NCBI RefSeq assembly: GCF_017751145.1
Contig: NZ_CP046640.1
Coordinates: 3,824,137 to 3,888,136, forward strand
Direction of reading: 5' to 3'
Length of the DNA stretch: 64,000 bases
From: Iocasia fonsfrigidae
GTDB lineage: Bacteria > Bacillota > Halanaerobiia > Halanaerobiales > DTU029
Positions 29,161 through 51,765 of the stretch are shown one piece after another (position 1 is the first letter of the stretch; every line of letters begins with the position of its first letter). Below the pieces are notes generated by a model that worked only from the letters and a program-made list of their open reading frames with translations, had not been told where the DNA came from and did not search any database. A program made the translations under genes and the position numbers.

Positions 29161-29277
29161 AAAACCCCTCCCCATATATAAAAATATTCATTGTGAAAGT
29201 TAATTATTAGTAATTTACTCAAGTTAATTATATCATTTTTCTTTGCTTAATCAAACAATAATTTAACCTAAAGGTTA

Positions 29278-29438
29278 TAATCCAGACAAATATATTTACT
29301 GAACGACTCTAGAAATTGTCTGGAGGCATGGACGCCGAAAGACAATTTCTCGACAGTAAGCGGAGGCAGGACGCCGTAGTGCACGACAAGGGAAGTAAAT
29401 ATATTTGTCGATGTTGAAAGTTATCTACAATCCTACAA
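29278..29438. repeat. Structured dispersed repeat, copy 1
   Basis: Outer inverted arms GACAAATATATTTACT and AGTAAATATATTTGTC enclose two inner hairpins. The first has stem GAAATTGTCT/AGACAATTTC capped by GGCATGGACGCC, the second is CGGAGGCAGGACGCCG. Two relatives lie at 44312 and 51541, with matching compensatory changes. The surrounding 29161-29522 gap holds nothing else except a terminator. Not a family I recognise. Confidence 0.85.
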
Positions 29439-29450
29439 AATGTGGTGTTT

Positions 29451-37709: not shown

Positions 37710-39089
37710 ATGGCCACTAAAGAAAATATACTAAAGGGATTTGAACAGCACAACCACGAGTTTCAACTGCTGGGCATTTTATTACAATACCCTGAAAAGA
37801 TTGATGAGATAGCTGATACCCTGGAGTTAAAACACTTTTTGAATCCACAGGCCCAGTTAATCTATGAAATTCTCCTTAATCAATTTCAGGAAAACAGTCA
37901 AATATCCAGAACAAAACTCTTTTTAAGACTAAAGAAAGATGGTATTATTAAAAAACCAGAAGAAACCATCGAACTTCTTACGTCTGGTTTTAATACCCTT
38001 GATGAATTGTTACCAACTATTGACCTTATTAAAAATAACTATCAAAAACAATTACTGCTTAAAGCAGCCAGGAGATTAAAAGAGTTAGTTGATAAAACTG
38101 ACCTCTCTATCGGAGATTATCAGGCCAGGGCACAGGATATTATTTTTGAGGCTACCAATGAATCAACAGATACGGAAAAACATATTTATCTAATGGAAGA
38201 GGCCTTAATGGATTCTTTTGAAGCCTATATTGACCGGAAACACAACAAAGCTGATGTCGGTCTGCGGACAGGGTTCATCTCACTAGATAATTTAATCGGT
38301 GGGTTTAAAAAAGGACACCTCTCTGTACTGGCTGCTTCTACCAGTATGGGTAAAACCGCCTTTGCTATCAATATAGCCAAAAATATCATTAAACGGAATG
38401 TCCCAGTGGCAGTTATCAGCCTGGAGATGGATGCCCAGGAGATTATCGACCGCATGATTATCCAGGAATCAGGTGTTAACGGCTGGAAATATAATCAGGG
38501 AGAAACAAATGAGGAAGAAGATAAAAGGGTTTCCAGGGCACTTGATACCCTTCATAAACTCCCTCTGGTTATTTCTGATGAAAGGGGACTAAATGTTGCC
38601 CAGATCAGGGCCCGGCTCCGCAAGTTTAAATCACAGATGGGAGAGCTCGGTCTGGTTGTTATTGATTATCTACAGATGATCCAGCTGCCTGATGAGCAGC
38701 TGCATAATACAGCCCGGGCTGTCGGTCAGGTTGTCCTACAGCTGAGAAACTTAGCTTCTGAAATAAATGTACCTATTATTCTTATATCCCAGATTAGCCG
38801 TAGTTTTACCAGCCGACAAGATAAAAGACCTGTCCTCTCTGATTTAAGAGATTCTGGTAATATTGAAGAGGTTGCTGATGGGGTTATCTTCCTCTACCGC
38901 CATGCCCATACCAGTGCTGCTGCCCGTGAAAAGGCTGAAGAAGAAGGAACAGCCAACGATACTGATGTAATTGTAGCCAAGCAGAGGACTGGTCAAACCG
39001 GTTCAATTAAACTCTATTTTGAAGATGAATATATCCGCTTTATCGACCCTGAGAACCTGTCCCTGGAGGAGAGTCTACCCAATGTATGA
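37710..39089 (+). CDS. dnaB: Replicative DNA helicase
   Basis: 459 residues, hexameric 5'-3' helicase at the fork. N-terminal DnaB domain (LLGILLQYPEKIDEIADTL), linker, then the RecA-like ATPase domain: TGFISLDNLIGGFKKGHLSV, Walker A AASTSMGKTAFAINIAKN near 210, LVVIDYLQMIQL near 318 and ILISQISRSFTSRQDKRP near 350, and GNIEEVADGVIFLYR near 390. No intein is seen at the usual Walker A or Q-SRS sites. RBS AAAGGAGG before ATG 37710. The following small gene overlaps its stop. Confidence 0.95.
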   Translation: MATKENILKGFEQHNHEFQLLGILLQYPEKIDEIADTLELKHFLNPQAQLIYEILLNQFQENSQISRTKLFLRLKKDGIIKKPEETIELLTSGFNTLDELLPTIDLIKNNYQKQLLLKAARRLKELVDKTDLSIGDYQARAQDIIFEATNESTDTEKHIYLMEEALMDSFEAYIDRKHNKADVGLRTGFISLDNLIGGFKKGHLSVLAASTSMGKTAFAINIAKNIIKRNVPVAVISLEMDAQEIIDRMIIQESGVNGWKYNQGETNEEEDKRVSRALDTLHKLPLVISDERGLNVAQIRARLRKFKSQMGELGLVVIDYLQMIQLPDEQLHNTARAVGQVVLQLRNLASEINVPIILISQISRSFTSRQDKRPVLSDLRDSGNIEEVADGVIFLYRHAHTSAAAREKAEEEGTANDTDVIVAKQRTGQTGSIKLYFEDEYIRFIDPENLSLEESLPNV

Positions 39090-39279
39090 TGAAAACATAG
39101 AATCCCAGCTGGATTTTGATTTAAAAGCCGTCCTGGCCTTTGCCAATCGTTATGAAAAATTACATGAAAAAGGGATAATTTCAGCCGAACAGTTAGAACA
39201 AATTATTACCCTGATTGAGGATTATCAAAAATATAGTTTTGAGGAGTTTAAAGAAAAACTTAGAAGTATTATGAATTAA
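39082..39279 (+). CDS. Small acidic protein translationally coupled to DnaB
   Basis: 65 residues, mostly helical and charged: YDENIESQLDFDLKAVLAFA then ISAEQLEQIITLIEDYQKY. The ATG at 39082 overlaps the helicase stop by eight bases and has GGAGGAG at a good distance, so it looks real and coupled. The longer upstream frame is a dnaB shadow. I do not recognise the family. A stoichiometric DnaB partner is one possibility. Confidence 0.6.
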   Translation: MYDENIESQLDFDLKAVLAFANRYEKLHEKGIISAEQLEQIITLIEDYQKYSFEEFKEKLRSIMN

Positions 39280-39335
39280 GTAAATATGTCTGTTCTAACT
39301 TCTAGTATGAAAACAATCAATACTGAATTGTGTAA

Positions 39336-39372
39336 TCAAGAAAAGAACCTTCACTGAAGGTTCTTTTCTTGA
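39336..39372. terminator. Bidirectional terminator after the replication operon
   Basis: TCAAGAAAAGAACCTTC / GAAGGTTCTTTTCTTGA, a 17-base perfect stem with a short loop, rich in A on one arm and T on the other. It can serve the plus-strand replication operon and the minus-strand DUF350 gene. Confidence 0.8.
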
Positions 39373-39402
39373 TATACATAATATATATACTATAAATATT
39401 TT

Positions 39403-39597
39403 TTATACAATCACTGCACTCACTACAATAGCTACGCCAATAAATATTCCAGCTACAGTTAAACCAGCAGCTATATTATGGTCATCAATTTCTTCATTTA
39501 AATCAAATGGAGTAATTATATCAAATATTTTATAACCTAAGGCACAAAGTATCATACCTATAACAAAATAAACTATACTTGAAAGAATTGGATTCAC
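39403..39597 (-). CDS. DUF350 small membrane protein, copy 1
   Basis: 64 residues with two hydrophobic helices (SIVYFVIGMILCALGYKIFD and LTVAGIFIGVAIVVSAVIV) separated by an acidic linker, as in the DUF350/YjfL family. Starts with GTG 39597. Last gene of the PspA-centred cluster and paralogous to its neighbour at 39650. Family members are proposed to sit with potassium channels and PspA-type systems in membrane stress; no biochemical role is established. Confidence 0.82.
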   Translation of the reverse strand: MNPILSSIVYFVIGMILCALGYKIFDIITPFDLNEEIDDHNIAAGLTVAGIFIGVAIVVSAVIV

Positions 39598-39649
39598 TTA
39601 CCTAAACCCCCTTAATTTATCTAATAGTTTTAAACAGAGAAACCATTTA

Positions 39650-39850
39650 CTAAATAATTGCCGCTTTTATAATAATAGCCACTGCTATAAAGATTCCTGC
39701 AATTACTACACCTATAGCTGGATTTTTCTCTTTAATTTCTTCTGCGAAATTATATGGAGTTATCCAGTCAAAAAATTTATAACCTAAAAACATTAAAACT
39801 AAGGCCAGTACTGCATAAACAATAGTTGCAATAAATTCATTTGTTAACAT
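39650..39850 (-). CDS. DUF350 small membrane protein, copy 2
   Basis: Same layout as copy 1: helix FIATIVYAVLALVLMFLGYK, linker with TPYNFAEEIKEKNPAIGVVI, then a second helix. Both copies share the DxITP-(F/Y)-(D/N)-x-x-EEI pattern in the linker. I prefer ATG 39850 (MLTNEFIATIV) over 39862, whose ribosome site would abut it, but either is possible. Two tandem copies suggest a heteromeric membrane complex. Confidence 0.78.
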   Translation of the reverse strand: MLTNEFIATIVYAVLALVLMFLGYKFFDWITPYNFAEEIKEKNPAIGVVIAGIFIAVAIIIKAAII

Positions 39851-39880
39851 ATTCTCCTTCATCTCCTTTCCTTTATGATA

Positions 39881-40909
39881 TTAAATACAAAAATTATCTA
39901 TTCTCTTCAAAGCCATATATATAAGATAATCCCCTGCTAACACCAGCTTACTATTATCAGGATTAAGTAATACATTATCTCCCCTCTTCAATCCCAGGAG
40001 AATAGCATTCTCTTTCTGTTTTAGATATGTAAACAACTCCGCAAAACTTTTATCTGCATATTCTTTCTCTACTTTTAACATATATACTTCATTCCCTATT
40101 TTATTTGTTAAAAGTTCATTAAAAACAATAGAAGTACCATGGTAAAAAGCAGTCCTTACCATTAAGCGACTACTTATATCATTATTAACTACAATCTCAT
40201 CAACACCAGCATTTTGCAAGTGTATTCTATTCTCTTCTTTACTAATTTCAGCAATAGAATATAAAGTTGAATTTAAAGAATTAATCGTTAAAGCTGATAA
40301 AACAGTAGTTGCATCATTATTATCTTCATTCAAGATAATGGCAGTTCTAGCCCACTGTATATTGGCTTTTTCCAGTATTTCTTTATCATCAATCTCACCT
40401 CGAATAAAATGAACCAGATTATTATCAGGAAAGGGATCTCTTTCTAAATCAGCTATCAAAACTATCTGTTTATTCTCTATATCTTCGTTTAATATTTGCC
40501 TTATTATTTCAGAGGTCTTTTCACACCAACCACAGATAATAATATGTCCTTTATAGTCAGCAGTCAATTGGCCCAACTCCCTTCTCTTTTCTATTTTTAT
40601 AAATAGATCTGTTATTGTAGCAGTAATTCCGCCAAAAAGGCCAATACCTAAAACCATTAAGACAACAGCTAGTAATCTCCCTCCCACTGAAACAGGGAAA
40701 AAATCCCCATATCCAACTGTAGTAGCAGTAACTACTACCCACCAAATAGCATCAGCCAAAGAATTAAATTGATCTTGTGGTTCAATATTATAAACAATAA
40801 AAGCAATAATCAGAAAGATAATAATCCCCAGTAGAAGCATCCTGAACAACAATTTAGGATCTATCTGAGTCTTAAATCTCTTAAAATATCCTAGTAGTAC
40901 ATTAAACAT
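39881..40909 (-). CDS. Potassium channel with TrkA-N (RCK) regulatory domain
   Basis: 342 residues. Two transmembrane helices flank a pore helix and the selectivity filter TTVGYGDFFPV near residue 68, so K+ selectivity is expected. The cytosolic RCK part begins GHIIICGWCEKTSEIIRQIL near 120, with a GxGx-like nucleotide pocket changed to GWCEK. Central gene of the PspA cluster, between DUF350 and the spermidine-synthase-like gene. Probably gated by a nucleotide or membrane state. Confidence 0.88.
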   Translation of the reverse strand: MFNVLLGYFKRFKTQIDPKLLFRMLLLGIIIFLIIAFIVYNIEPQDQFNSLADAIWWVVVTATTVGYGDFFPVSVGGRLLAVVLMVLGIGLFGGITATITDLFIKIEKRRELGQLTADYKGHIIICGWCEKTSEIIRQILNEDIENKQIVLIADLERDPFPDNNLVHFIRGEIDDKEILEKANIQWARTAIILNEDNNDATTVLSALTINSLNSTLYSIAEISKEENRIHLQNAGVDEIVVNNDISSRLMVRTAFYHGTSIVFNELLTNKIGNEVYMLKVEKEYADKSFAELFTYLKQKENAILLGLKRGDNVLLNPDNSKLVLAGDYLIYMALKRIDNFCI

Positions 40910-40938
40910 AATAAGTCTATCTCTCCAATCTCTATCCT

Positions 40939-42471
40939 TTAGTTATACTCTTCCCAGGCATTATAATAAGTCCTGATTAAAATAGGCCTGATTAGGGTAT
41001 TAATATCAGCTGTTTTTTCATTTAATATATCCTGGCCAAATACAAACAAATTCTCGGCCTGTTGATCAGTCAAAAATTTTGTAGCCACCTTAATTTTGAT
41101 GTCAGCCGGATTAAATCTAAAACCCTTTGTCCCTATATTAAATCCCCAGTCTCCAAAAGAAGGAATATAAACATGATATGGCCTGGTATAAAAGCCAGCT
41201 TCTTTAATAGTATTATGTATAATCCAAAAACATTCAGCAGCAAAGTAAGGGGATGTAGATTGGGCAGCCATAATTCCTTGATCATTTAAATGCTCATAAA
41301 CAAATCTATAAAATGTTACAGTATATAATTTATTCAAACTCTCATTATTTGGATCAGGAAGATCAACAAGAATTACATCATATTTTTTTTTACTTGTTTC
41401 TAAGTACTGATAAGCATCCTGATTAATAATCTTAACCCTTTTGTCACTAAACGAATCCTGATTGAACTTAAGAAGATACTCAGAAGTTTTAGCAAGATCA
41501 GTTACTGATTTATCTAGATCTACCAGATCTATTTCTTGAATATCGGAGTATTTTAAAACCTCTCTTATAGCTAATCCATCACCACCACCCAAGATAAGAA
41601 TCTTCTTATCTCCATCTAATAAACTTAAAGCTGGATGAACTAAAGATTCATGATAACGGTATTCATCTTTTGAAGAAAACTGTATATTGCCATTTAAGAA
41701 TAGTCTAATATCATCCCTATCTTCTGTTATCACAATCTTTTGATATTCAGTCTGGCTGGAAAAAACAACCTTATCCCTGTATAACTTTCTTTCCAGAAAA
41801 GCCTCTGTATCATCAACAGTAAAAACACCTATCATAAGAATGACAATCACCAGCATAATAACAATAAATATCATCTTGTTTTTCCGTAAATTTCCTTTAT
41901 ATTTTATAAAAAGATAAGCTGCAACTATTATATTTAAGATCCCTATTATATAACTGGTTTTAATAAATCCCAATCTCGGCAATAGGAGAATCGGAAAAGC
42001 AATAGATCCAATTAACCCACCAATATAATCAGCAGCAGTTGCATTTGCTAAAGCATCTTTCAACTGATTAAAACTTCCAACAATTCTAGTAACTAATGGT
42101 AATTCAAAGCCAGTTAAAGTACCAATTATTACAGTCAATAAAAACATTATTGGCAGATAAGAATTCAGCACTGCATAACTATAAAATAGAATCAAACCAC
42201 AACTTCCACCTATTAAAGCTAAAGCTACTTCTATCAGCATAAACTTAAATATTAAATCTTCTTCAATATACTTTGAAAACAATGAACCTAAACCCATTGA
42301 AGTCATAAATAAACCTATTGTAATTGAAAATTGATAAACACTGTTACCCAATAAATATGAAGAAATACCACCAATAATCAACTCATATACTATTGAGGCA
42401 ATAGCAACAACAAAAGCACAAGTTAAGAAGGGTATTTTATTACTAAAATTCCTATTCCCTTTAGTTTCCAT
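40939..42471 (-). CDS. Membrane-embedded spermidine-synthase-like (aminopropyltransferase-fold) protein
   Basis: 510 residues. Residues 1-215 hold about seven hydrophobic segments. The rest is a spermidine-synthase-type SAM-binding domain: ILGGGDGLAIREVLKY near 300, DLVDLDKSVTDLAK near 320, and DVILVDLPDPNNESLNKLYT near 372. This SpeE-like/MFS-like fusion is a known partner of PspA, DUF350 and DUF4178 genes. Whether it makes a polyamine or modifies lipids is not known. Four bases past a SpeE shell do not prove activity. Confidence 0.83.
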   Translation of the reverse strand: METKGNRNFSNKIPFLTCAFVVAIASIVYELIIGGISSYLLGNSVYQFSITIGLFMTSMGLGSLFSKYIEEDLIFKFMLIEVALALIGGSCGLILFYSYAVLNSYLPIMFLLTVIIGTLTGFELPLVTRIVGSFNQLKDALANATAADYIGGLIGSIAFPILLLPRLGFIKTSYIIGILNIIVAAYLFIKYKGNLRKNKMIFIVIMLVIVILMIGVFTVDDTEAFLERKLYRDKVVFSSQTEYQKIVITEDRDDIRLFLNGNIQFSSKDEYRYHESLVHPALSLLDGDKKILILGGGDGLAIREVLKYSDIQEIDLVDLDKSVTDLAKTSEYLLKFNQDSFSDKRVKIINQDAYQYLETSKKKYDVILVDLPDPNNESLNKLYTVTFYRFVYEHLNDQGIMAAQSTSPYFAAECFWIIHNTIKEAGFYTRPYHVYIPSFGDWGFNIGTKGFRFNPADIKIKVATKFLTDQQAENLFVFGQDILNEKTADINTLIRPILIRTYYNAWEEYN

Positions 42472-42510
42472 ATTAATTACTCCTTATACTTATCCCTCTA
42501 ATAAAGCAGC

Positions 42511-42984
42511 TTATTTTCCAAAACCAAAACCACCACCGCGGGATGATGAAGAACCAATGCTACCTTCCCTTATACTGCGAGGGGTTCTTATCCTACCGCT
42601 CCGGTAAAGATTATTTCCCCAGAAAAAAACCATCGTATTATGATGACGACGATAGGCAGTTTTATGGTCTTCTATTAATTCTATTTCTGTATGCCCACCT
42701 TTATCTTCTACAATTATTACTGCTTCATCATATAATAAAATACTTTTCCCCGTAGAATCAATCTTTTGATCATAAGGTTTCTTTAATGAACTAATACTAT
42801 TTACCGTCATATTAAGATCATCTTTAGAGTCGTACGTTTTAACAGCACCCTCAACGGATTTTAAGGCATATTTTTTATCAACAGCCTTCACAATATTAGG
42901 TCCTCTTCCTGTTAATAAACCCCCTACAATAAAAATAATCAATATTAAGACCCCTAGACTAACAATAATATCTCTTTTTTCCAT
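42511..42984 (-). CDS. DUF4247-family membrane-anchored protein
   Basis: 157 residues. N-terminal single transmembrane helix (IIVSLGVLILIIFIVGGLL), then an extracytoplasmic beta-rich domain and a basic, glycine/serine-rich tail (SIGSSSSRGGGFGFGK). It fits the DUF4247 description of clusters like this one. Start is uncertain among GTG 42990, TTG 42987 and ATG 42984; I use the ATG. Function unknown. Confidence 0.7.
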   Translation of the reverse strand: MEKRDIIVSLGVLILIIFIVGGLLTGRGPNIVKAVDKKYALKSVEGAVKTYDSKDDLNMTVNSISSLKKPYDQKIDSTGKSILLYDEAVIIVEDKGGHTEIELIEDHKTAYRRHHNTMVFFWGNNLYRSGRIRTPRSIREGSIGSSSSRGGGFGFGK

Positions 42985-42990
42985 CAACAC

Positions 42991-43545
42991 TCAACCCTCC
43001 TTCTCTATTATACTTCTTGTTTTTATAATTTTTTTATCTGCTGGATAACTATGATAAGTTATCCAGCAAAATTTATCCTCTTTCCCCGTAATTTCAATGC
43101 TGGTAACAGCAAAGCCATCAGGTGAAGGAAAAACATACTCCAGATAAAAACCACAGCCTTTATCAGTATATTTATCTCCAAATTCCCCAGCATTTCTAAG
43201 ACAGTCATCAATTGTTTCAGTAATAAAACTATATTTATAAAAACTATTAAATCTTTTATTATACCTGTAGTTACAGCAAGCTATTAAATTCTTTTGTTGA
43301 ACAAGCACTTCATCAGCAATATCTTTTGAGTCAACACAGGCTAATAATTCTATTAATTTGTTTTTAGCACCTGTGTCAATTTTAACAAAATGACTTAATC
43401 CTATTATGGAAAAGTCTAATATAATCCCCTGCCAGTTTATAACCCTATTTTTTAATACATTAAATTTACAATTTAGAGCAGGAGACAGAAACAATTTGTA
43501 CTCAAGTCCTAAAACTGATAATTTTTTATACCTTACTTTATTCAT
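42991..43545 (-). CDS. DUF2617-like protein
   Basis: 184 residues without membrane segments. It resembles the DUF2617 partner of PspA clusters (LGLEYKLFLSPALNCKFNVL at the N terminus). The middle is cysteine-containing (IACCNYRYNKRFNSFYKYSF). It overlaps the pspA stop by eight bases, indicating tight coupling, and is 6 bases from the DUF4247 gene. The family match is from memory of the pattern, so it is moderate. No catalytic motif is visible. Confidence 0.6.
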   Translation of the reverse strand: MNKVRYKKLSVLGLEYKLFLSPALNCKFNVLKNRVINWQGIILDFSIIGLSHFVKIDTGAKNKLIELLACVDSKDIADEVLVQQKNLIACCNYRYNKRFNSFYKYSFITETIDDCLRNAGEFGDKYTDKGCGFYLEYVFPSPDGFAVTSIEITGKEDKFCWITYHSYPADKKIIKTRSIIEKEG

Positions 43546-44221
43546 TTTTATTCATTTCAGCCTTTAACTTAGCTAATTCATCATCTATAGAATCCTTATT
43601 TTCCAGTTCCTCAAACTGTGCTTCAAGATCATCTTTCTTTAAGTCTTCATATAATTCATCACTAGCCTGGGCCTCTGCTTCCATTTTACCAACTCTTTTT
43701 TCCAGTCTATCAAGATTGTCGCTCGCATTTTCCTTGCCAAGGCCACTCATTGTTTCATTAATTTCCTTAGTAGCTCTAGCAGATTCTGCAGCAGCAATTA
43801 ATTCATCTTGTCTATCTTCAGCTTCTTCAATTCTTTCCTGTAGTTCTTTTACTTTCGCTTTATGTATATCAGCAATCCTCCGTCTTTCAACTACCTGTTC
43901 CTGATATTTTTTATAATCCTTTTCAGCTTCTTGTTTTTTCTCTATTGCTTTTCTAGCCAAATCTTCATTACCAGCTTCCAGAGCCTGTTTAGCCCTATCA
44001 GCCCAGTGCTCTAATTCTTCTTTAGCTTTATTAGCTTTAGTCTCTGCCTCTTTAACCAAAGTAATAGACTTGGCAACTGCACTTTTAGCTTGCCGAAACT
44101 CCCCCTTCATCTTTCTTATTTCTTCTTTCACTATAGCTTCAATATTCTTATCTTCCAATTTATCCATCGCTTGATTGGCCTTACCCTTTACTAATGTCTT
44201 CATCCTATCAAAAAAACCCAC
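43538..44221 (-). CDS. pspA: PspA/IM30-family envelope-stress protein
   Basis: 227 residues, almost entirely coiled coil, beginning GFFDRMKTLVKGKANQAMDK with the amphipathic N-terminal helix. The long heptad region AELEHWADRAKQALEAGNED and the EEAEDRQDELIAAAESARAT segment are typical. GTG start at 44221 behind GAGGAGGG. Membrane-binding ESCRT-III-like protein that stabilises the inner membrane. Here it belongs to the channel/SpeE-like/DUF cluster and not to a pspF-pspBC operon. Confidence 0.92.
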   Translation of the reverse strand: MGFFDRMKTLVKGKANQAMDKLEDKNIEAIVKEEIRKMKGEFRQAKSAVAKSITLVKEAETKANKAKEELEHWADRAKQALEAGNEDLARKAIEKKQEAEKDYKKYQEQVVERRRIADIHKAKVKELQERIEEAEDRQDELIAAAESARATKEINETMSGLGKENASDNLDRLEKRVGKMEAEAQASDELYEDLKKDDLEAQFEELENKDSIDDELAKLKAEMNKNE

Positions 44222-44311
44222 TTCAAATCCCTCCTCATTTAAATTTCAAATTATTCTTACCTTTACCATAAAAAACAATAGAACAACACGACCTAACAGC
44301 CATCCAAACTT

Positions 44312-44580
44312 AATCACTAATTATTAACCTTACTTAAGAATACCTCTTACACAAAATTACCTTATTATCATAATACAGACAAATATATTTACTGGACGAC
44401 TCTAGAAATTGTCTGGAGGCATGGACGCCGAAAGACAATTTCTCGACAGTAACCGAAGGCAAGGCGCCGTAGTGCAACCTCAATTTTCTTGTACGGTCTA
44501 CTTAAATACGGAGTGCCCGTGGTGCACGACAAGGTAAGTAAATATATTTGTCGGTCTTCAAAGTTATCCACAATTTTCAA
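44312..44580. repeat. Structured dispersed repeat, copy 2
   Basis: Same family as 29278 and 51541. Outer arms GACAAATATATTTACT and AAGTAAATATATTTGTC, first inner hairpin identical to copy 1, second hairpin degenerate (GGCAAGGCGCC). A ~50 bp insertion after GTAGTGCA adds a third small hairpin (ACGGAGTGCCCGT). Left flank (AATAC...CTTACACAAA) and right flank (TTCAAAGTTATCCACAAT, including a TTATCCACA box) are also shared with copy 3. It lies between pspA and the DUF4178 gene and fills the 44222-44633 gap; the ORF at 44389-44628 is its shadow. Confidence 0.85.
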
Positions 44581-44633
44581 AATCACATAATTTAAGATTG
44601 AATCTCTAGTTTTCATACCAGATGTCAATCATC

Positions 44634-45152
44634 TTATTTGGCAGGATAAAATTCTAATAAACCTTCTTGCACTACTTCTCCAACACTAATTTCCAATTCA
44701 TTTCCCCATTTTTCAACTGATAGTTGATTTCCATTTCCTGTTTCATAATCCCAATATTTAATCCGCTGACCATCTTTGGCACCCACTTTCCCTTCAATTT
44801 CAATATTAGCACTACCTTCTTCAATTAAAGAATAATCCATATCTTCATATTTAATGACTGAAGGTATTTCTTCCTGGAACTTTGCATATAGTTGATGATC
44901 AACATCTAATTTCCGGAAGAGTCCTAATCTAACTTCATCATCATCTTCTGCATAAAGCCATAAGTGTTCTTTACTATCAAATAAATGATAATCATACCAT
45001 ATATAGCCTTCTTCATTATATTTAACTTTTCCTATGACCTGATATTCAACCAAATCATAATCTACAATATCATTAATTTGTAAATTAAATGGATTCCTTG
45101 CAACAATTTCTTCTTTTTTGTTTTTGTTAAATACCTTACTAAAAAAGCCCAT
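44634..45152 (-). CDS. DUF4178 protein
   Basis: 172 residues, all-beta, soluble. GFFSKVFNKNKKEEIVARNP at the N terminus followed by LQINDIVDYDLVEYQVIGKV and WLYAEDDDEVRLGLFRK. Matches the DUF4178 partner found in PspA/SpeE-like/DUF350 clusters. First gene of the cluster (AAGGAGGT before ATG 45152), separated from pspA by the structured repeat. Function unknown. Confidence 0.78.
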   Translation of the reverse strand: MGFFSKVFNKNKKEEIVARNPFNLQINDIVDYDLVEYQVIGKVKYNEEGYIWYDYHLFDSKEHLWLYAEDDDEVRLGLFRKLDVDHQLYAKFQEEIPSVIKYEDMDYSLIEEGSANIEIEGKVGAKDGQRIKYWDYETGNGNQLSVEKWGNELEISVGEVVQEGLLEFYPAK

Positions 45153-45277
45153 AGTACCTCCTTCTTATTACCATATTAATTTTTTATGCAAAAATATTAT
45201 ATTAAAAAAAACAAAAATACACAAAATTCATCTAAATTATAACATTTATTACTATTTGTTTCAATAATAGTTTTCTA

Positions 45278-46770
45278 AATGAGTTTCCCCATTTTTAAAA
45301 ATAGCAAAAACTAACCTTTACTGTCATAGTGGTAAAGAAAGTTGTAAATTGTTTTGTGATCGCTGTTTTTGGTAATAACTTTTTAAAAACGAATTTATTC
45401 CAGTGTATGATTTCTCTAAAATAGCTTTAAAACCATCTGCTATTGCATAATAATCAAAATCCGGGAGATTAAATATTCTATCAGAAACCTTCTTTACAAT
45501 TATCTTGAGTTCGGTCTGTTTTTTCTTGTTTGAAAATAGAGCTAAAAATCCTATTGCTATTGATAAAATTAAATCTAAATTTCTTATTCTTTTTAAAGAT
45601 CTTACTCTAAAATTTTCAAAGTCAAACTTCTGTTTTTTGAATCTAAAATATTCTTCTATTCTCCATCTTTTAATATATGCTTTTAAAATGATAAGAGTAA
45701 GTTTTTTAGCCTTTGGCCTTAAATTTGTAATTAACATCATTGGATTATTTCCAAGGCCTCTAACGATTACAAGAGTTAACTTTTTATCTTTTAAAGCTGG
45801 TAATTTAATTGGAGCATAACTAAATTTTAATTTTCTTTTTTTGTTATCCTGGTTGGTATAGCAATAGACATATTTACCTTTGTATAGATCAGCTATTTTC
45901 TTAATATTTATGCTTCTGCCTTTATAAATAAGATTGCGGTTACTTTTAGCCCTAATTACAAAATCTTTATTGCTATCAGTAAAATATTTATAATAAAGAT
46001 TGGCATCATAGCCTCTATCAAGGGCATAAATACCTTTTTTTCCAAAATGCTTTTCAATAAAATTAAGACCTTTTAATGCTTCAATATTTCTACTTTTAAA
46101 ACCAGATTCTAAACTTGAGTAGATATGAGAGTATACTTCTATAGGCAGTTCTTTATTATCAGTTAGAGCAGCTATTTCAAAAGTATCATAACCTTTTTCA
46201 GTTTCACCTTTGCTACCATCTCTAACTCTATCAAGAGCCTCCAGTTCTTTACTGTAGGGTTTTACTATATCTGATTTGTCACAGCAGAAAACAGTATTAT
46301 CATCAATATGTGGTTTAATCTTATTTAGATAATCAGTAATTAGTTCTTCTTGTTGATTAAAATTTTCAAGGTTTCTGGATAAACGTTCAACAGTTTTTTT
46401 GAAAAGGATATCTTCTTTAAGAGAACGAGCAATATTACTTAAAAGTACTGATTGACCTTTTAGTAAACCATAAATCATTTGAGTAATAAATTTAGTTTTA
46501 GGTTTTGATAGGTTTTTAGAAATACTTTTAGAAAAATTGCTTACTTTTCGTTTCAATTGGTAAATAAATTTGGTATAATTACTCATAGGTGGAACAACTC
46601 CTTTTGGTTTTTGTGTCCAAACAAATTATACCAAATTCAGGAGCTTGTTTCACCTTTTTTGCGTAATCTGTGGATAACTATTTTTAAACCATTCTCAACA
46701 TGAATTATCCACAATTTTGCCTGTTGATAACTTTTTCTTTATATACACTCAAAAAATGGGGAAACTCCTG
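45278..46770 (-). mobile_element. IS4-family insertion sequence, copy C
   Basis: About 1493 bp, same ends as copy A. Flanks share TAGTTTTCTA (10 bp; left 45268-45277, right 46771-46780) as a target duplication. It lies upstream of the DUF4178 gene, between it and the lonC terminator, and contains the same three DnaA-box-like sites upstream of its transposase. Confidence 0.93.
45324..46586 (-). CDS. IS4-family DDE transposase (copy C)
   Basis: 420 residues, full length. Differs from copies A and B by Lys for Glu in NKKRKLK and Ile for Thr in LTLIILK. All catalytic motifs are retained. It contains the usual IS4 C-terminal region with KSYYQKQRSQNNLQL before the end. Confidence 0.95.
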   Translation of the reverse strand: MSNYTKFIYQLKRKVSNFSKSISKNLSKPKTKFITQMIYGLLKGQSVLLSNIARSLKEDILFKKTVERLSRNLENFNQQEELITDYLNKIKPHIDDNTVFCCDKSDIVKPYSKELEALDRVRDGSKGETEKGYDTFEIAALTDNKELPIEVYSHIYSSLESGFKSRNIEALKGLNFIEKHFGKKGIYALDRGYDANLYYKYFTDSNKDFVIRAKSNRNLIYKGRSINIKKIADLYKGKYVYCYTNQDNKKRKLKFSYAPIKLPALKDKKLTLVIVRGLGNNPMMLITNLRPKAKKLTLIILKAYIKRWRIEEYFRFKKQKFDFENFRVRSLKRIRNLDLILSIAIGFLALFSNKKKQTELKIIVKKVSDRIFNLPDFDYYAIADGFKAILEKSYTGINSFLKSYYQKQRSQNNLQLSLPL

Positions 46771-46863
46771 TAGTTTTCTAGCACTTGCTTCTTAAAACAA
46801 ATAAATCAAAATTTATCAACATCCAAATTTATTATAAATTATACAAAATATAAACCAAAATCA

Positions 46864-46892
46864 ATAAAAAACCGTGGCAACCCACGGTTTAT
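46864..46892 (-). terminator. Terminator after lonC
   Basis: Minus-strand AAACCGTGGG / CCACGGTTT, nine-base stem, then TTTTATTGATTTT. It lies about 20 bp past the stop of the Lon-family gene and closes the rpsF-lonC operon. Beyond it is only the IS end. Confidence 0.8.
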
Positions 46893-46910
46893 AAACTCAC
46901 TTTAGTTAAA

Positions 46911-48845
46911 TTATTTCACTATTGATATCTTACTATTATCAATCAGGACCCTGTTCAAGGCCTCTCTAACAGTAGTAATTGCTGTTGTTTTAATCTTTAT
47001 ATCCTGACTGACATCATTATTATTTTCCCCAGGAAGGAGGACCTCTCTGATGCCTGCCTGTTCTGCAGCGTGTAGTTTCTCCCTGATACCACCAACTGGT
47101 TTAACCTTGCCCTGAATAGAAACCTCTCCTGTTACTGCTATATCCTGTTTTAAGGGTATTTCTTCTATAGCACTAATAATAGCCAGGAGTATAGCTATCC
47201 CAGCAGATGGCCCATCAACATTCCCACCACCGATAATATTGACATGGAGGTCGTAATCATCTATATTCTTCCCGATTATTTTCCTGACAACAGCTGCAGC
47301 ATTAAAGAGTGAGTCCTTGGTCATTGAACCAGCAGTCTCATTAAAATGGATTTTACCCCTGCCCTCAACAGCTGATTTAAAGGCTACAGCCTCTATCTCA
47401 ATAATTGAACCAATAAATCCATTAACCCCCAGTCCAAATATCTTGCCGATTTGCGTGTCCTCTGCAGTATCAATCTTATTATACGGCGTCATCCGCCGGT
47501 TCTGCAGGGCCTGATATAATATCTCATCAGTAATAAGTGGTTTTTCCTGATCGGTGTCATCCTTTTCATAGAGTATTAGACTGTAGGCATCAAGTAAAAG
47601 GTTTATAGCAGTCCTACCTTCAATAGTATAACTACTAATAATATCCGGAATATTTTCTGCCACACTAACAGCCAGTTTAGCTACTGCATTTTGGACAATC
47701 TTCTTAATATCTTCCCTGCTCAGTGGGTTAAAAAACACCTCTGCACAACGGGACCTGAAAGCCGGATTTATAGCCTCCGGACTCCTGGTAGTAGCACCAA
47801 TTAAGATAAAGTCTGCTGGAGCACCTTCCTTAAAGAGTTTCTGAATATATAACGGTATCTGGTCACTGTTTTCATCATAATAGGATGACTCAAATTTAAC
47901 CCGTTTATCTTCCATTACTTTTAAAAGTTTGTTCTGCAACATAGGGTCAAGCTCTCCTATCTCATCAATAAAGAGAACCCCCCCATGGGCTTCTGTAACC
48001 AATCCTGTCTTCGGTTCAGGAACCCCTTCATTGGCCAAATTCTTCCTGGCGCCCTGATAAATAGGGTCATGAACAGAACCTAAAAGTGGATTTGTTACTT
48101 CTCTGGGGTCCCAGCGCAGTGTTGTACCATCTACCTCTACAAAATTGGAATCATCATAAAAAGGTGTATTCTTTCTCTTCTTGGCTTCTTCTAGAGCAAG
48201 CCGGGCAGCAGTAGTCTTGCCAACACCTGGTGGGCCATAGAGTATAATATGCTGGGGATAGGGTGAGGCAATTTTGGAAACCAGGGCTTTAATCGCTGAA
48301 TCCTGACCAATTATTTCAGCAAAACTCTGCGGTCTAACCAGATCCAGGGTAGAACGGTTTAAGCCCCTTGCCTCCATCTTTTCCAGTTGTGCCAGACGGC
48401 GTAGTGTCTGAGCATTATCAACTGTCTCCTCGCCCTGTACTATTTCCTTTTTGATCTCTTTTAGATACTCCCGCTCCCTCTTTTTCATCCTGACTGCAAT
48501 CTGCTGTTCAAGTTCTTTTTCTACTGAACGTTCTGCCAGCAGATCTGCTAGTTTATTTTCCAGTCTGTCTAATCTTTCATTGACTGGCCCTTCAATTTTT
48601 TGTGAAGGGTCATCATAAATAAGCCGCTCCAGGGCAGTCAGTCTTTCTTTTGTTTTTTCCGAACTAATTAAGTCAAGTACATCAACCCTACCAGCCTTTA
48701 TAATAAACCTGTCTCTCCCATAATAATCACTAATCTTCTTATATAGTGCTTTAAGACGTTTATCCTGGTTATCTATACTACTGTCTTTATTCTGTTTTAG
48801 CTGTACATCTCCTTTATGAAAAAAACGCTGCCAGAAGGGTTTCAT
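46911..48845 (-). CDS. lonC: LonC-type ATP-dependent protease
   Basis: 644 residues. AAA+ domain: Walker A ILYGPPGVGKTTAARLA near 200, Walker B LFIDEIGELDPMLQNKLLKV near 285. The C-terminal Lon protease domain has the catalytic serine in NVDGPSAGIAILLAI near 540 and the partner lysine in GKVKPVGGIREKLHAAEQA near 585. Residues 15-150 include a coiled-coil rich N-terminal region. The domain order fits LonC of Firmicutes. Last in the rpsF operon and 26 bases after rplI. Confidence 0.88.
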   Translation of the reverse strand: MKPFWQRFFHKGDVQLKQNKDSSIDNQDKRLKALYKKISDYYGRDRFIIKAGRVDVLDLISSEKTKERLTALERLIYDDPSQKIEGPVNERLDRLENKLADLLAERSVEKELEQQIAVRMKKREREYLKEIKKEIVQGEETVDNAQTLRRLAQLEKMEARGLNRSTLDLVRPQSFAEIIGQDSAIKALVSKIASPYPQHIILYGPPGVGKTTAARLALEEAKKRKNTPFYDDSNFVEVDGTTLRWDPREVTNPLLGSVHDPIYQGARKNLANEGVPEPKTGLVTEAHGGVLFIDEIGELDPMLQNKLLKVMEDKRVKFESSYYDENSDQIPLYIQKLFKEGAPADFILIGATTRSPEAINPAFRSRCAEVFFNPLSREDIKKIVQNAVAKLAVSVAENIPDIISSYTIEGRTAINLLLDAYSLILYEKDDTDQEKPLITDEILYQALQNRRMTPYNKIDTAEDTQIGKIFGLGVNGFIGSIIEIEAVAFKSAVEGRGKIHFNETAGSMTKDSLFNAAAVVRKIIGKNIDDYDLHVNIIGGGNVDGPSAGIAILLAIISAIEEIPLKQDIAVTGEVSIQGKVKPVGGIREKLHAAEQAGIREVLLPGENNNDVSQDIKIKTTAITTVREALNRVLIDNSKISIVK

Positions 48846-48870
48846 TTTTTACACTCCTTCAAATTATAAG

Positions 48871-49314
48871 CTAGGCTTCAACAACCTTTACCTTCAGGGT
48901 AGCCTCAACATCCTTGAATATCTTAACCTTCACCTTATGTACCCCAAGTGATTTTATATGATCAGATAAATCAATTTTTCTTTTATCTATTTTGAATCCC
49001 TCTTTTTTTACTGCCTTGGCAATATCTTTGGTGGTAACTGAGCCAAATAGTCTACCATTTTCTCCAGCCTTAACAGCTATGACAAAATCTTTTTCTGCTA
49101 ATTTGCTGGCCAGTTCCTCTGCTTCAGCCCGGTTTTCCTTATATTTCCTCTCCTGAATCTTTTCCTTATGTTTTAGTTCATTTAAATTGCTCTGGGTTGC
49201 CTCTTCAGCCAGACCTTTGGGCATGAGAAAGTTCCTTGCATAACCATCTGAAACCTTAACAATATCACCTTTACTACCTAATTTTTTAACATCACTTTTT
49301 AGAATAACCTTCAT
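48871..49314 (-). CDS. rplI: 50S ribosomal protein L9
   Basis: 147 residues. N domain with [20 protein letters not shown] (canonical start at ATG 49314, so I drop the GTG codon just upstream), the signature [13 protein letters not shown] near 28, a connecting helix and the C domain with [20 protein letters not shown]. Binds 23S rRNA. Between yybS and lonC. Confidence 0.96.
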
Positions 49315-51474: not shown

Positions 51475-51540
51475 GACCAATTTAAAAGACGACAGTGTAA
51501 TTCCATTTATATTTAACAAAATGGCTTCGTCACCTAGACT

Positions 51541-51765
51541 TAATCAACAATTATAACTTTACTTAGGAATATTTATTACACAAAGTTAACTAGTTTTAAT
51601 AATCCAGACAGATATATTTGTTGTACGACTCTAGAAATTATCCGTAGGCAGGACGCCGAAGGATAATTTCTCGACAGTAAGCGGAGGTAGGACACCGCAG
51701 CACACGACAAGGAAAACAAATATATCTGTCGGTCTTCAAAGTTATCCACAATCCTGCAAACCATA
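51541..51765. repeat. Structured dispersed repeat, copy 3
   Basis: Third member of the family. Outer arms GACAGATATATTTGTT and AACAAATATATCTGTC, first hairpin GAAATTATCC/GGATAATTTC with GGCAGGACGCC cap, second hairpin GGAGGTAGGACACC. Each arm differs from copy 1 with matching changes in the partner arm. Left and right flanks match copy 2, including TTATCCACA near 51742. It occupies most of the 51370-51785 gap between rpsF and the phage-like genes. Confidence 0.87.

What the first reader, a model, noticed from the sequence alone, without database searches (positions are those of the whole stretch)
39403..45152. PspA-centred envelope-stress cluster without classical psp regulators
DUF4178, PspA, DUF2617-like, DUF4247, a seven-helix SpeE-like enzyme, a TrkA-type K+ channel and two DUF350 proteins are consecutive on one strand. 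This combination is seen in comparative genomics as a PspA partner set, but its chemistry is unsolved. Having tandem DUF350 paralogues and both DUF4247 and DUF2617 makes this a rather complete example. No pspF or pspBC is present.
Basis: partly seen in the sequence, partly recalled or inferred. Interest (0 to 1): 0.55.

Follow-up and report, generated by a model that had tools for sequence, protein, structure and literature searches.

The report
Predicted missing decarboxylase in PspA operon
A bacterial membrane-stress gene cluster that contains a polyamine-type enzyme, but whose genome lacks the usual gene for making that enzyme's co-substrate, carries a protein of unknown function that looks like a new kind of the missing decarboxylase.

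Summary
In detail: eight minus-strand genes, from DUF4178 to two half-size DUF350 genes. The operon type is already in print (PMC11237479), so the gene set is not new. The new point is DUF2617. The complete genome has membrane-SpeE but no SpeD, so no known source of decarboxylated AdoMet. In 348 genomes of the phylum, DUF2617 occurs in exactly the four that have membrane-SpeE and lack SpeD. Among 90 membrane-SpeE genomes it is in 0 of 75 with SpeD and 7 of 15 without. Four of the remaining eight have an NspC-like decarboxylase gene overlapping SpeE. The invariant polar residues of DUF2617 (Ser-His, Glu, Cys, Thr, a distant His) fit the two-half AdoMet decarboxylase layout. A low-confidence AF2 model has human AdoMetDC as best VIA row (Z 7.1); a second model does not repeat it. 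Best reading: DUF2617 is an unrecognised, probably pyruvoyl, AdoMet decarboxylase feeding the membrane aminopropyltransferase. This is a prediction; no activity was tested.

The parts
45236..45264 (-). promoter-like site TTGAAA-17-TATAAT with TG before the second hexamer, upstream of DUF4178
   Evidence: consensus scan, 11 of 12 positions, the best of 41 in the region; shuffles give 31.8 on average; a match, not proof
44634..45152 (-). DUF4178 protein, 172 aa
   Evidence: PF13785, 105.6 bits
44308..44583 (.). dispersed repeat inside the 412-nt gap between DUF4178 and PspA
   Evidence: blastn of the gap against the window: further copies at 29277-29441 and 51538-51752; no such gap in L028-L030
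43538..44221 (-). PspA/IM30, 227 aa, GTG start
   Evidence: PF04012, 144.4 bits; only copy in the genome
42991..43545 (-). DUF2617, 184 aa: predicted AdoMet decarboxylase; Ser51-His52, Glu66, Cys70, Thr148, His165 invariant in 8 members
   Evidence: PF10936, 46.6 bits; invariants; exclusion of SpeD
42511..42990 (-). DUF4247 protein, 159 aa
   Evidence: PF14042, 44.5 bits
40939..42471 (-). membrane-fused SpeE-like aminopropyltransferase, 510 aa; carries GGGDG and DLPDP
   Evidence: NF002956 613.5 bits; PF01564 142 bits; conserved residues
39881..40909 (-). K+ channel with RCK/TrkA-N domain, 342 aa
   Evidence: PF07885 and PF02254
39650..39862 (-). half-size DUF350 protein, 70 aa
   Evidence: PF03994 positions 1-65 of 133
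39403..39597 (-). half-size DUF350 protein, 64 aa
   Evidence: PF03994 positions 6-65 of 133
39335..39373 (-). terminator-like perfect hairpin after the last gene
   Evidence: fold -24.6 kcal/mol, z -7.9 against 200 shuffles; not among the sites of the consensus scan

Best explanation
The cluster is a PspA-linked membrane aminopropylation operon. DUF2617 takes the place of the absent SpeD: it is a two-half, probably pyruvoyl-dependent AdoMet decarboxylase that makes decarboxylated AdoMet (dcAdoMet). The membrane-fused SpeE then moves the aminopropyl group onto an acceptor at the membrane that is probably not free putrescine, changing envelope charge; PspA, the RCK K+ channel and the DUF350 hairpins act with it at the stressed membrane. 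Shown here: gene content, genome-wide absence of a PF02675 match, exclusion of SpeD and DUF2617 in every sample, kept SpeE residues, invariant Ser-His, Cys and His in DUF2617. Inferred: decarboxylase activity, a pyruvoyl group from Ser51, the acceptor, and the roles of PspA, the channel and DUF350.
For: (1) SpeD (PF02675) is absent from the complete own genome, with no first-look candidate. (2) In 348 genomes of the phylum, full-length membrane-SpeE is in 12 (at E 1e-40), SpeD in 271, DUF2617 in 4, and these 4 are exactly the 4 of 12 without SpeD. (3) In 90 distinct membrane-SpeE genomes: SpeD+ 75, of which DUF2617 0; SpeD- 15, of which DUF2617 7; Fisher 8.6e-7, counting genomes and not events. 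The 7 fall in three groups: own class (4), Anaerolineae (2), Poribacteria (1). (4) An eighth, G517 (phylum of the Anaerolineae locus L087), has DUF2617 476 nt upstream of membrane-SpeE and no SpeD even at E 0.1. (5) SpeD lies in the same locus in 29 of 80 loci, and the four SpeD- and DUF2617-less loci with Campylobacterota-type titles carry an NspC-like PLP decarboxylase overlapping SpeE. (6) Of polar residues only S51, H52, E66, C70, T148 and H165 are invariant in 8 DUF2617 proteins; Ser, Cys and a second-half His are what PMC1282579 section 19 lists for the two-half AdoMetDC. Ser to Cys is 19 residues here and 20 in SpeD, where the Cys is kept in 11 of 13. (7) hhalign of the C half against 29 SpeD: score 31.7, against at most 16.6 in 60 column shuffles; five other operon families score 10.9-17.4. 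(8) Top VIA row for the first AF2 model: 1msv, human AdoMetDC, Z 7.1, 145 aligned, the longest alignment of the 50 rows. (9) Both control genomes with DUF2617, Corynebacterium glutamicum and Haloferax volcanii, have no PF02675 match at E 0.001; PMC5178350 (passages) reports membrane SpeE but no AdoMetDC in H. volcanii and other halophiles.
Against: The AF2 models are poor (pLDDT 56.7 and 56.5, three-row alignments). Foldseek finds nothing at E 0.001 for either, Z 7.1 is in the range the tool calls common, and the second model does not list AdoMetDC. The N half alone does not score above shuffles (16.3 against a 95% level of 16.5); the 13-row SpeD alignment gives only 5.6-6.1% probability. No DUF2617 scanned is listed against PF02675 or PF01536. 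The residue before the Ser, Glu in most SpeD, is Leu in the window. DUF2617 is next to membrane-SpeE on one strand only in the own class and G517; in L087 it is convergent with it, and in G394 and G422 it lies elsewhere. PMC11237479 section 19 has an ambiguous sentence that 'these operons' encode an AdoMet decarboxylase; if it covers the DUF2617 variant, exclusion is not universal. Four MAGs with membrane-SpeE (L045, L092, L095, L110) have no decarboxylase found. At E 0.1 C. glutamicum gives a below-cut-off PF02675 match, place not shown. The counts rest on few evolutionary events, and actinobacteria and haloarchaea were not sampled.
Confidence: 0.62

Rival explanations
1. Transfer first, decarboxylate later: membrane-SpeE uses AdoMet itself and transfers a 3-amino-3-carboxypropyl group, and DUF2617 (or the NspC-like enzyme in Campylobacterota) decarboxylates the product.
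For: NspC acts on carboxy-polyamines (its NCBIfam name), and an NspC-like gene overlaps SpeE in the four SpeD-less Campylobacterota-type loci. The own genome has no known dcAdoMet source.
Against: SpeE residues invariant in the 12 membrane proteins are the same in SpeD+ and SpeD- genomes, 28 columns are shared with stand-alone SpeE, and SpeD sits in the locus in 29 of 80, so dcAdoMet is the likelier donor.
Confidence: 0.13
2. DUF2617 is no decarboxylase: it is a binding or chaperone partner of PspA that replaces CesT/Tir (YjfI), and its exclusion of SpeD is a by-product of lineage.
For: PMC11237479 lists DUF4247 and DUF2617 where the CesT/Tir-PspA dyad is missing; in the window DUF2617 follows and overlaps PspA. 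Only a few independent groups are in the sample.
Against: Seven of the eight SpeD+ relatives have DUF4178, PspA, DUF4247 and SpeE on one strand without DUF2617; exclusion holds in three groups and in two control genomes; a chaperone would not be expected to have Ser-His, Cys and His as nearly its only invariant polar residues.
Confidence: 0.17
3. The SpeE is a plain spermidine synthase, with dcAdoMet from a SpeD elsewhere in the genome that is too diverged to detect.
For: NF002956 names it polyamine aminopropyltransferase.
Against: PF02675 finds 271 of 348 genomes of the phylum and no candidate in the own genome. Recalled abstract of Li et al. 2019 (PMID 31467246, not held): such a fusion does not complement an E. 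coli speE deletion.
Confidence: 0.08

Closest known systems
PspA operon with 7TM-SpeE, DUF350 and DUF4178 (second group of Ravi et al. 2024, PMC11237479)
   Same: PspA, membrane-fused SpeE, DUF350 and DUF4178 in one operon (section 19 read whole)
   Different: no CesT/Tir gene; adds a K+ channel, DUF4247 and DUF2617, the last two placed by that paper in a variant of its third group without the PspA dyad; DUF350 is two half-size genes
S-adenosylmethionine decarboxylase SpeD / AdoMetDC (PF02675; two-half class 2, PF01536)
   Same: Ser-His, Cys about 20 residues on, a second-half His with Pro at +3, Phe and Gly/Pro before it; weak profile and fold similarity
   Different: not listed by hmmscan against either family; two unequal halves in 184 aa; Glu before the Ser not kept in the window protein
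membrane-fused SpeE of Haloferax volcanii (HVO_0255, HVO_B0357; PMC5178350 and PMC6267482, passages read)
   Same: membrane SpeE in an organism with DUF2617 (control) and no AdoMetDC; the source of dcAdoMet is called an open question
   Different: archaeal; its gene neighbourhood was not examined here
Carboxynorspermidine decarboxylase NspC (TIGR01047)
   Same: NspC-like proteins overlap SpeE in four SpeD-less loci
   Different: PLP enzyme family; they score 299-375 bits against a cut-off of 409; none in the window operon

Membership tests
7TM-SpeE PspA operon (Ravi 2024 second group) | PspA, membrane-SpeE, DUF350 and DUF4178 clustered on one strand | tested here: met
   the number of TM helices was not predicted here
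7TM-SpeE PspA operon (Ravi 2024 second group) | CesT/Tir-PspA dyad | tested here: not met
   no CesT/Tir match among the ten proteins scanned
Classical Psp system | pspF and pspBC next to pspA | tested here: not met
   none among the proteins scanned in 39403-45152 and the transposase upstream; genome outside not searched
Polyamine aminopropyltransferase NF002956 | score over curated cut-off | tested here: met
   613.5 against 472 bits
Polyamine aminopropyltransferase NF002956 | aminopropyl transfer to a polyamine | not testable with these tools
   needs enzyme assay; putrescine residues of Haloferax homologues reported as not conserved (PMC5178350)
AdoMet decarboxylase (as family PF02675 or PF01536) | DUF2617 matches the family profile | tested here: not met
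   not listed at E up to 10 for the window and L028 proteins; hence not filed as a member
AdoMet decarboxylase (as a kind of enzyme) | conserved Ser, Cys and His of the active site | tested here: met
   S51, C70 and H165 invariant in 8 of 8; their closeness in space was not measured
AdoMet decarboxylase (as a kind of enzyme) | AdoMetDC fold | tested here: inconclusive
   1msv top row, Z 7.1; not listed for the second model; Foldseek nothing at E 0.001
AdoMet decarboxylase (as a kind of enzyme) | self-cleavage and AdoMet decarboxylation | not testable with these tools
   needs purified protein
DUF2617 (PF10936) | score over gathering cut-off | tested here: met
   46.6 against 22.3 bits

The most novel reading that the evidence does not exclude
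DUF2617 is a so far unrecognised prokaryotic class of pyruvoyl AdoMet decarboxylase built of two unequal halves, with the cofactor Ser and the Cys in the first half and the processing His in the second, like the eukaryotic class 2 enzyme but much shorter. It would be the missing dcAdoMet source for membrane aminopropyltransferases in haloarchaea, actinobacteria, Chloroflexota and this lineage, and an independent or ancestral counterpart of the eukaryotic two-half enzyme, which PMC10407285 (passages) calls a eukaryotic invention.
Probability: 0.48. Interest if true: 0.85.

Novelty: new variant of a known kind. Interest (0 to 1): 0.7.

Why it matters
PMC5178350 (passages) asks where Haloferax volcanii would get dcAdoMet for its membrane SpeE proteins, since no AdoMetDC is found in halophiles. 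A DUF2617 decarboxylase would answer that, give a first function to a domain that PMC11237479 also cites with accession CCP45394.1 (a Mycobacterium tuberculosis protein, by recall), and show that the PspA-linked operon needs a dcAdoMet supply, which makes its unknown acceptor chemistry testable in vitro. The exclusion pattern turns a list of DUFs into a two-enzyme pathway.

Tried and rejected
No Rfam family at gathering threshold in 38500-49000. PF01536 gave 0 of 12 genomes, but no control rang, so absence of class 2 AdoMetDC is not shown. Viral contigs: 92 pattern matches, none a DUF2617 relative. Plasmids: no DUF2617; 14 plasmid records with membrane-SpeE were not followed. PDB sequence search with DUF2617: best E 0.061. 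The second AF2 model, Anaerolineae protein first, does not list AdoMetDC. Human spermine synthase N-terminal residues appear in both VIA lists (Z 5.2 and 4.6); I recall, from no call, that this domain resembles AdoMetDC, and give it no weight. BFVD: nothing at E 0.001. A first comparison of membrane and stand-alone SpeE kept only 2 stand-alone sequences because of a strict motif filter; redone with 10.

Print: the word DUF2617 is in 3 papers of the library; I saw the passages of all three and none proposes a decarboxylase. Other paper searches showed nothing on it in the listings I saw. Li et al. 2019 (PMID 31467246) is not held and is quoted from recall. PMC11841054 was seen in passages only, PMC10407285 and PMC11107197 likewise. 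Rows dropped before the 90-genome count: L039 (taken as G076) and L061 (taken as G374), by equal contig lengths.
Full report
What is there. Eight genes lie in a row on the minus strand of 39403-45152: DUF4178, PspA, DUF2617, DUF4247, a membrane-fused SpeE, an RCK K+ channel and two half-size DUF350 genes, each above its Pfam cut-off. A promoter-like site (11 of 12 positions) precedes DUF4178, though the region as a whole holds 41 such sites against 31.8 in shuffles. A perfect hairpin (-24.6 kcal/mol, z -7.9) follows the last gene. From PspA on, genes overlap or lie at most 52 nt apart; PspA and DUF2617 overlap by 8 nt. Between DUF4178 and PspA lies a 412-nt gap with a dispersed repeat that L028-L030 lack, so DUF4178 may or may not still share the transcript.

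Is it known. The operon type is. Ravi et al. 2024 (PMC11237479, section 19 read whole) describe PspA operons with 7TM-SpeE, DUF350 and DUF4178, and place DUF2617 with DUF4247 in a variant lacking the CesT/Tir-PspA dyad. [quoted passage not shown] From recall, Li et al. 2019 (PMID 31467246, not held) report SpeD next to such SpeE fusions and that the fusion does not complement an E. coli speE deletion.

The missing decarboxylase. Spermidine-type SpeE uses decarboxylated AdoMet, made by SpeD (PMC10407285, passages). In the order, membrane-SpeE is in 3 of 38 genomes (E 1e-40) and SpeD in 4 of 38, never together. In 348 genomes of the phylum, SpeD is in 271. The SpeE query finds 23 genomes at E 1e-40; 12 match over the membrane part too, and in the other 11 only the SpeE part matches (one of these with stops inside). 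Of the 12, 4 lack SpeD, the own complete genome included. DUF2617 is in 4 of 348, the same 4. I take the three draws of 348 to be the same genomes; the listed handles agree. Neighbourhoods of the 12 (window and L028-L038): DUF4247 and SpeE in 12 of 12, DUF4178 in 11, PspA on the same strand in 11 (L033 lacks DUF4178 and has PspA on the other strand), a channel in 8; DUF2617 only in the 4 without SpeD.

Wider sample. SpeD lies in the locus in 29. Of the other 51, 50 genomes were searched (L061 left out as a copy of G374): 38 have SpeD. DUF2617 was searched in 61 and 29 genomes. After dropping L039 as a copy of G076 this gives 90 genomes: SpeD with DUF2617 0, SpeD alone 75, DUF2617 alone 7, neither 8 (Fisher 8.6e-7). 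Completeness of the 78 genomes reached through loci is not told, and many are MAGs, so a missing gene is weaker evidence there. The 7 come from three groups, so independent events are few. An eighth DUF2617 genome, G517 (one of 2 in 201 in that phylum sample), has DUF2617 476 nt upstream of membrane-SpeE and no SpeD. Linkage is not uniform: DUF2617 is in the operon in the own class and beside SpeE in G517, convergent with SpeE in L087, and elsewhere in G394 and G422. The 8 with neither are all MAGs by title. Four of them, with Campylobacterota-type titles (L054, L070, L083, L093), have an NspC-like decarboxylase whose open frame overlaps SpeE by 16-58 nt; that protein is found in these 4 of 92 loci only (whole genomes were not searched for it). 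In the other four (L045, L092, L095, L110) none was found. Control genomes: DUF2617 rings in Corynebacterium glutamicum and Haloferax volcanii, SpeD in eight others; at the looser E 0.1 a below-cut-off SpeD match appears in C. glutamicum. Whether C. glutamicum has membrane-SpeE was not tested.

What DUF2617 looks like. Eight divergent members share L14, L31, I47, I48, G49, S51, H52, E66, L68, C70, F139, P140, T148, H165 and P168. PMC1282579 section 19 (read whole) describes the duplicated AdoMetDC: pyruvoyl Ser in strand 4, an adjacent Cys, and a processing His in strand 12 of the second half, which no longer cleaves. In both DUF2617 models the Ser-His opens a strand and the His with Pro at +3 is in the second-last strand; the Cys follows the Ser by 19 residues. 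SpeD here has S63-H64, H68 and P71 invariant, and a Cys 20 after the Ser in 11 of 13 (the roles of H68 and C83 in the Thermotoga enzyme are recalled). Three of those 13 SpeD proteins have Thr or Lys instead of Glu before the Ser, so the Leu of the window is not disqualifying. The C half scores 31.7 against 29 SpeD, 60 column shuffles at most 16.6; the N half is not above noise. With eight members the score is 34.4 against the 29 SpeD (69% probability) but 22.9 (6%) against a 13-row SpeD alignment (22.8). The first AF2 model (pLDDT 56.7, pTM 0.61) has human AdoMetDC 1msv as top VIA row, Z 7.1, rmsd 3.9, 145 aligned, next row 5.9 with 59 aligned; Foldseek itself gives nothing at E 0.001. The second model does not repeat it.

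Reading. The strongest argument is genetic: the enzyme family normally goes with SpeD, four genomes have an NspC-like gene on top of SpeE instead, and those with DUF2617 have neither. The residue pattern was noted after the exclusion and before the fold search. I therefore take DUF2617 as the AdoMet decarboxylase of this operon (0.62), working like one rather than a member of the family, since it is not listed against PF02675 or PF01536. Membrane SpeE keeps 28 columns in common with ten stand-alone SpeE-like proteins. [quoted passage not shown] In PMC6267482 (passages) a transposon insertion in HVO_0255 goes with hypochlorite hypertolerance, in line with an envelope role. The acceptor and the roles of PspA, the channel and DUF350 remain inference.

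Noticed in passing
window 29277-29441, 44308-44583, 51538-51752: A dispersed repeat with three copies in the window, 81-94% identical in aligned pieces; one copy sits inside the operon between DUF4178 and PspA.
   Followed up: partly
L054 3768-4838, L070 3001-4125, L083 9502-10563, L093 9505-10578: NspC-like PLP decarboxylase open frames, below the nspC cut-off, overlap membrane-SpeE in four loci whose genomes lack SpeD: perhaps a third decarboxylase for the same pathway.
   Followed up: partly
window 39403-39862; L028, L029, L040, L041, L046, L048, L057, L058: DUF350 occurs here as two tandem half-size genes; in other loci it is one half-size frame, one of about 110-165 aa, or one of about 280-300 aa: a modular unit.
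   Followed up: no
window 45324-46586: A DDE transposase gene (PF01609) lies 171 nt upstream of DUF4178.
   Followed up: no
L060, L051, L062: SpeD proteins of these loci have Thr or Lys instead of Glu before the Ser, a possible sign of altered substrate.
   Followed up: no
L126 5052-5618 and 10286-11442: The Poribacteria genome has DUF2617 about 5 kb from a CesT/Tir-PspA pair on the other strand.
   Followed up: no
L029 7526-8546: The K+ channel of this relative is split over two overlapping open frames, a frameshift or sequencing error.
   Followed up: no
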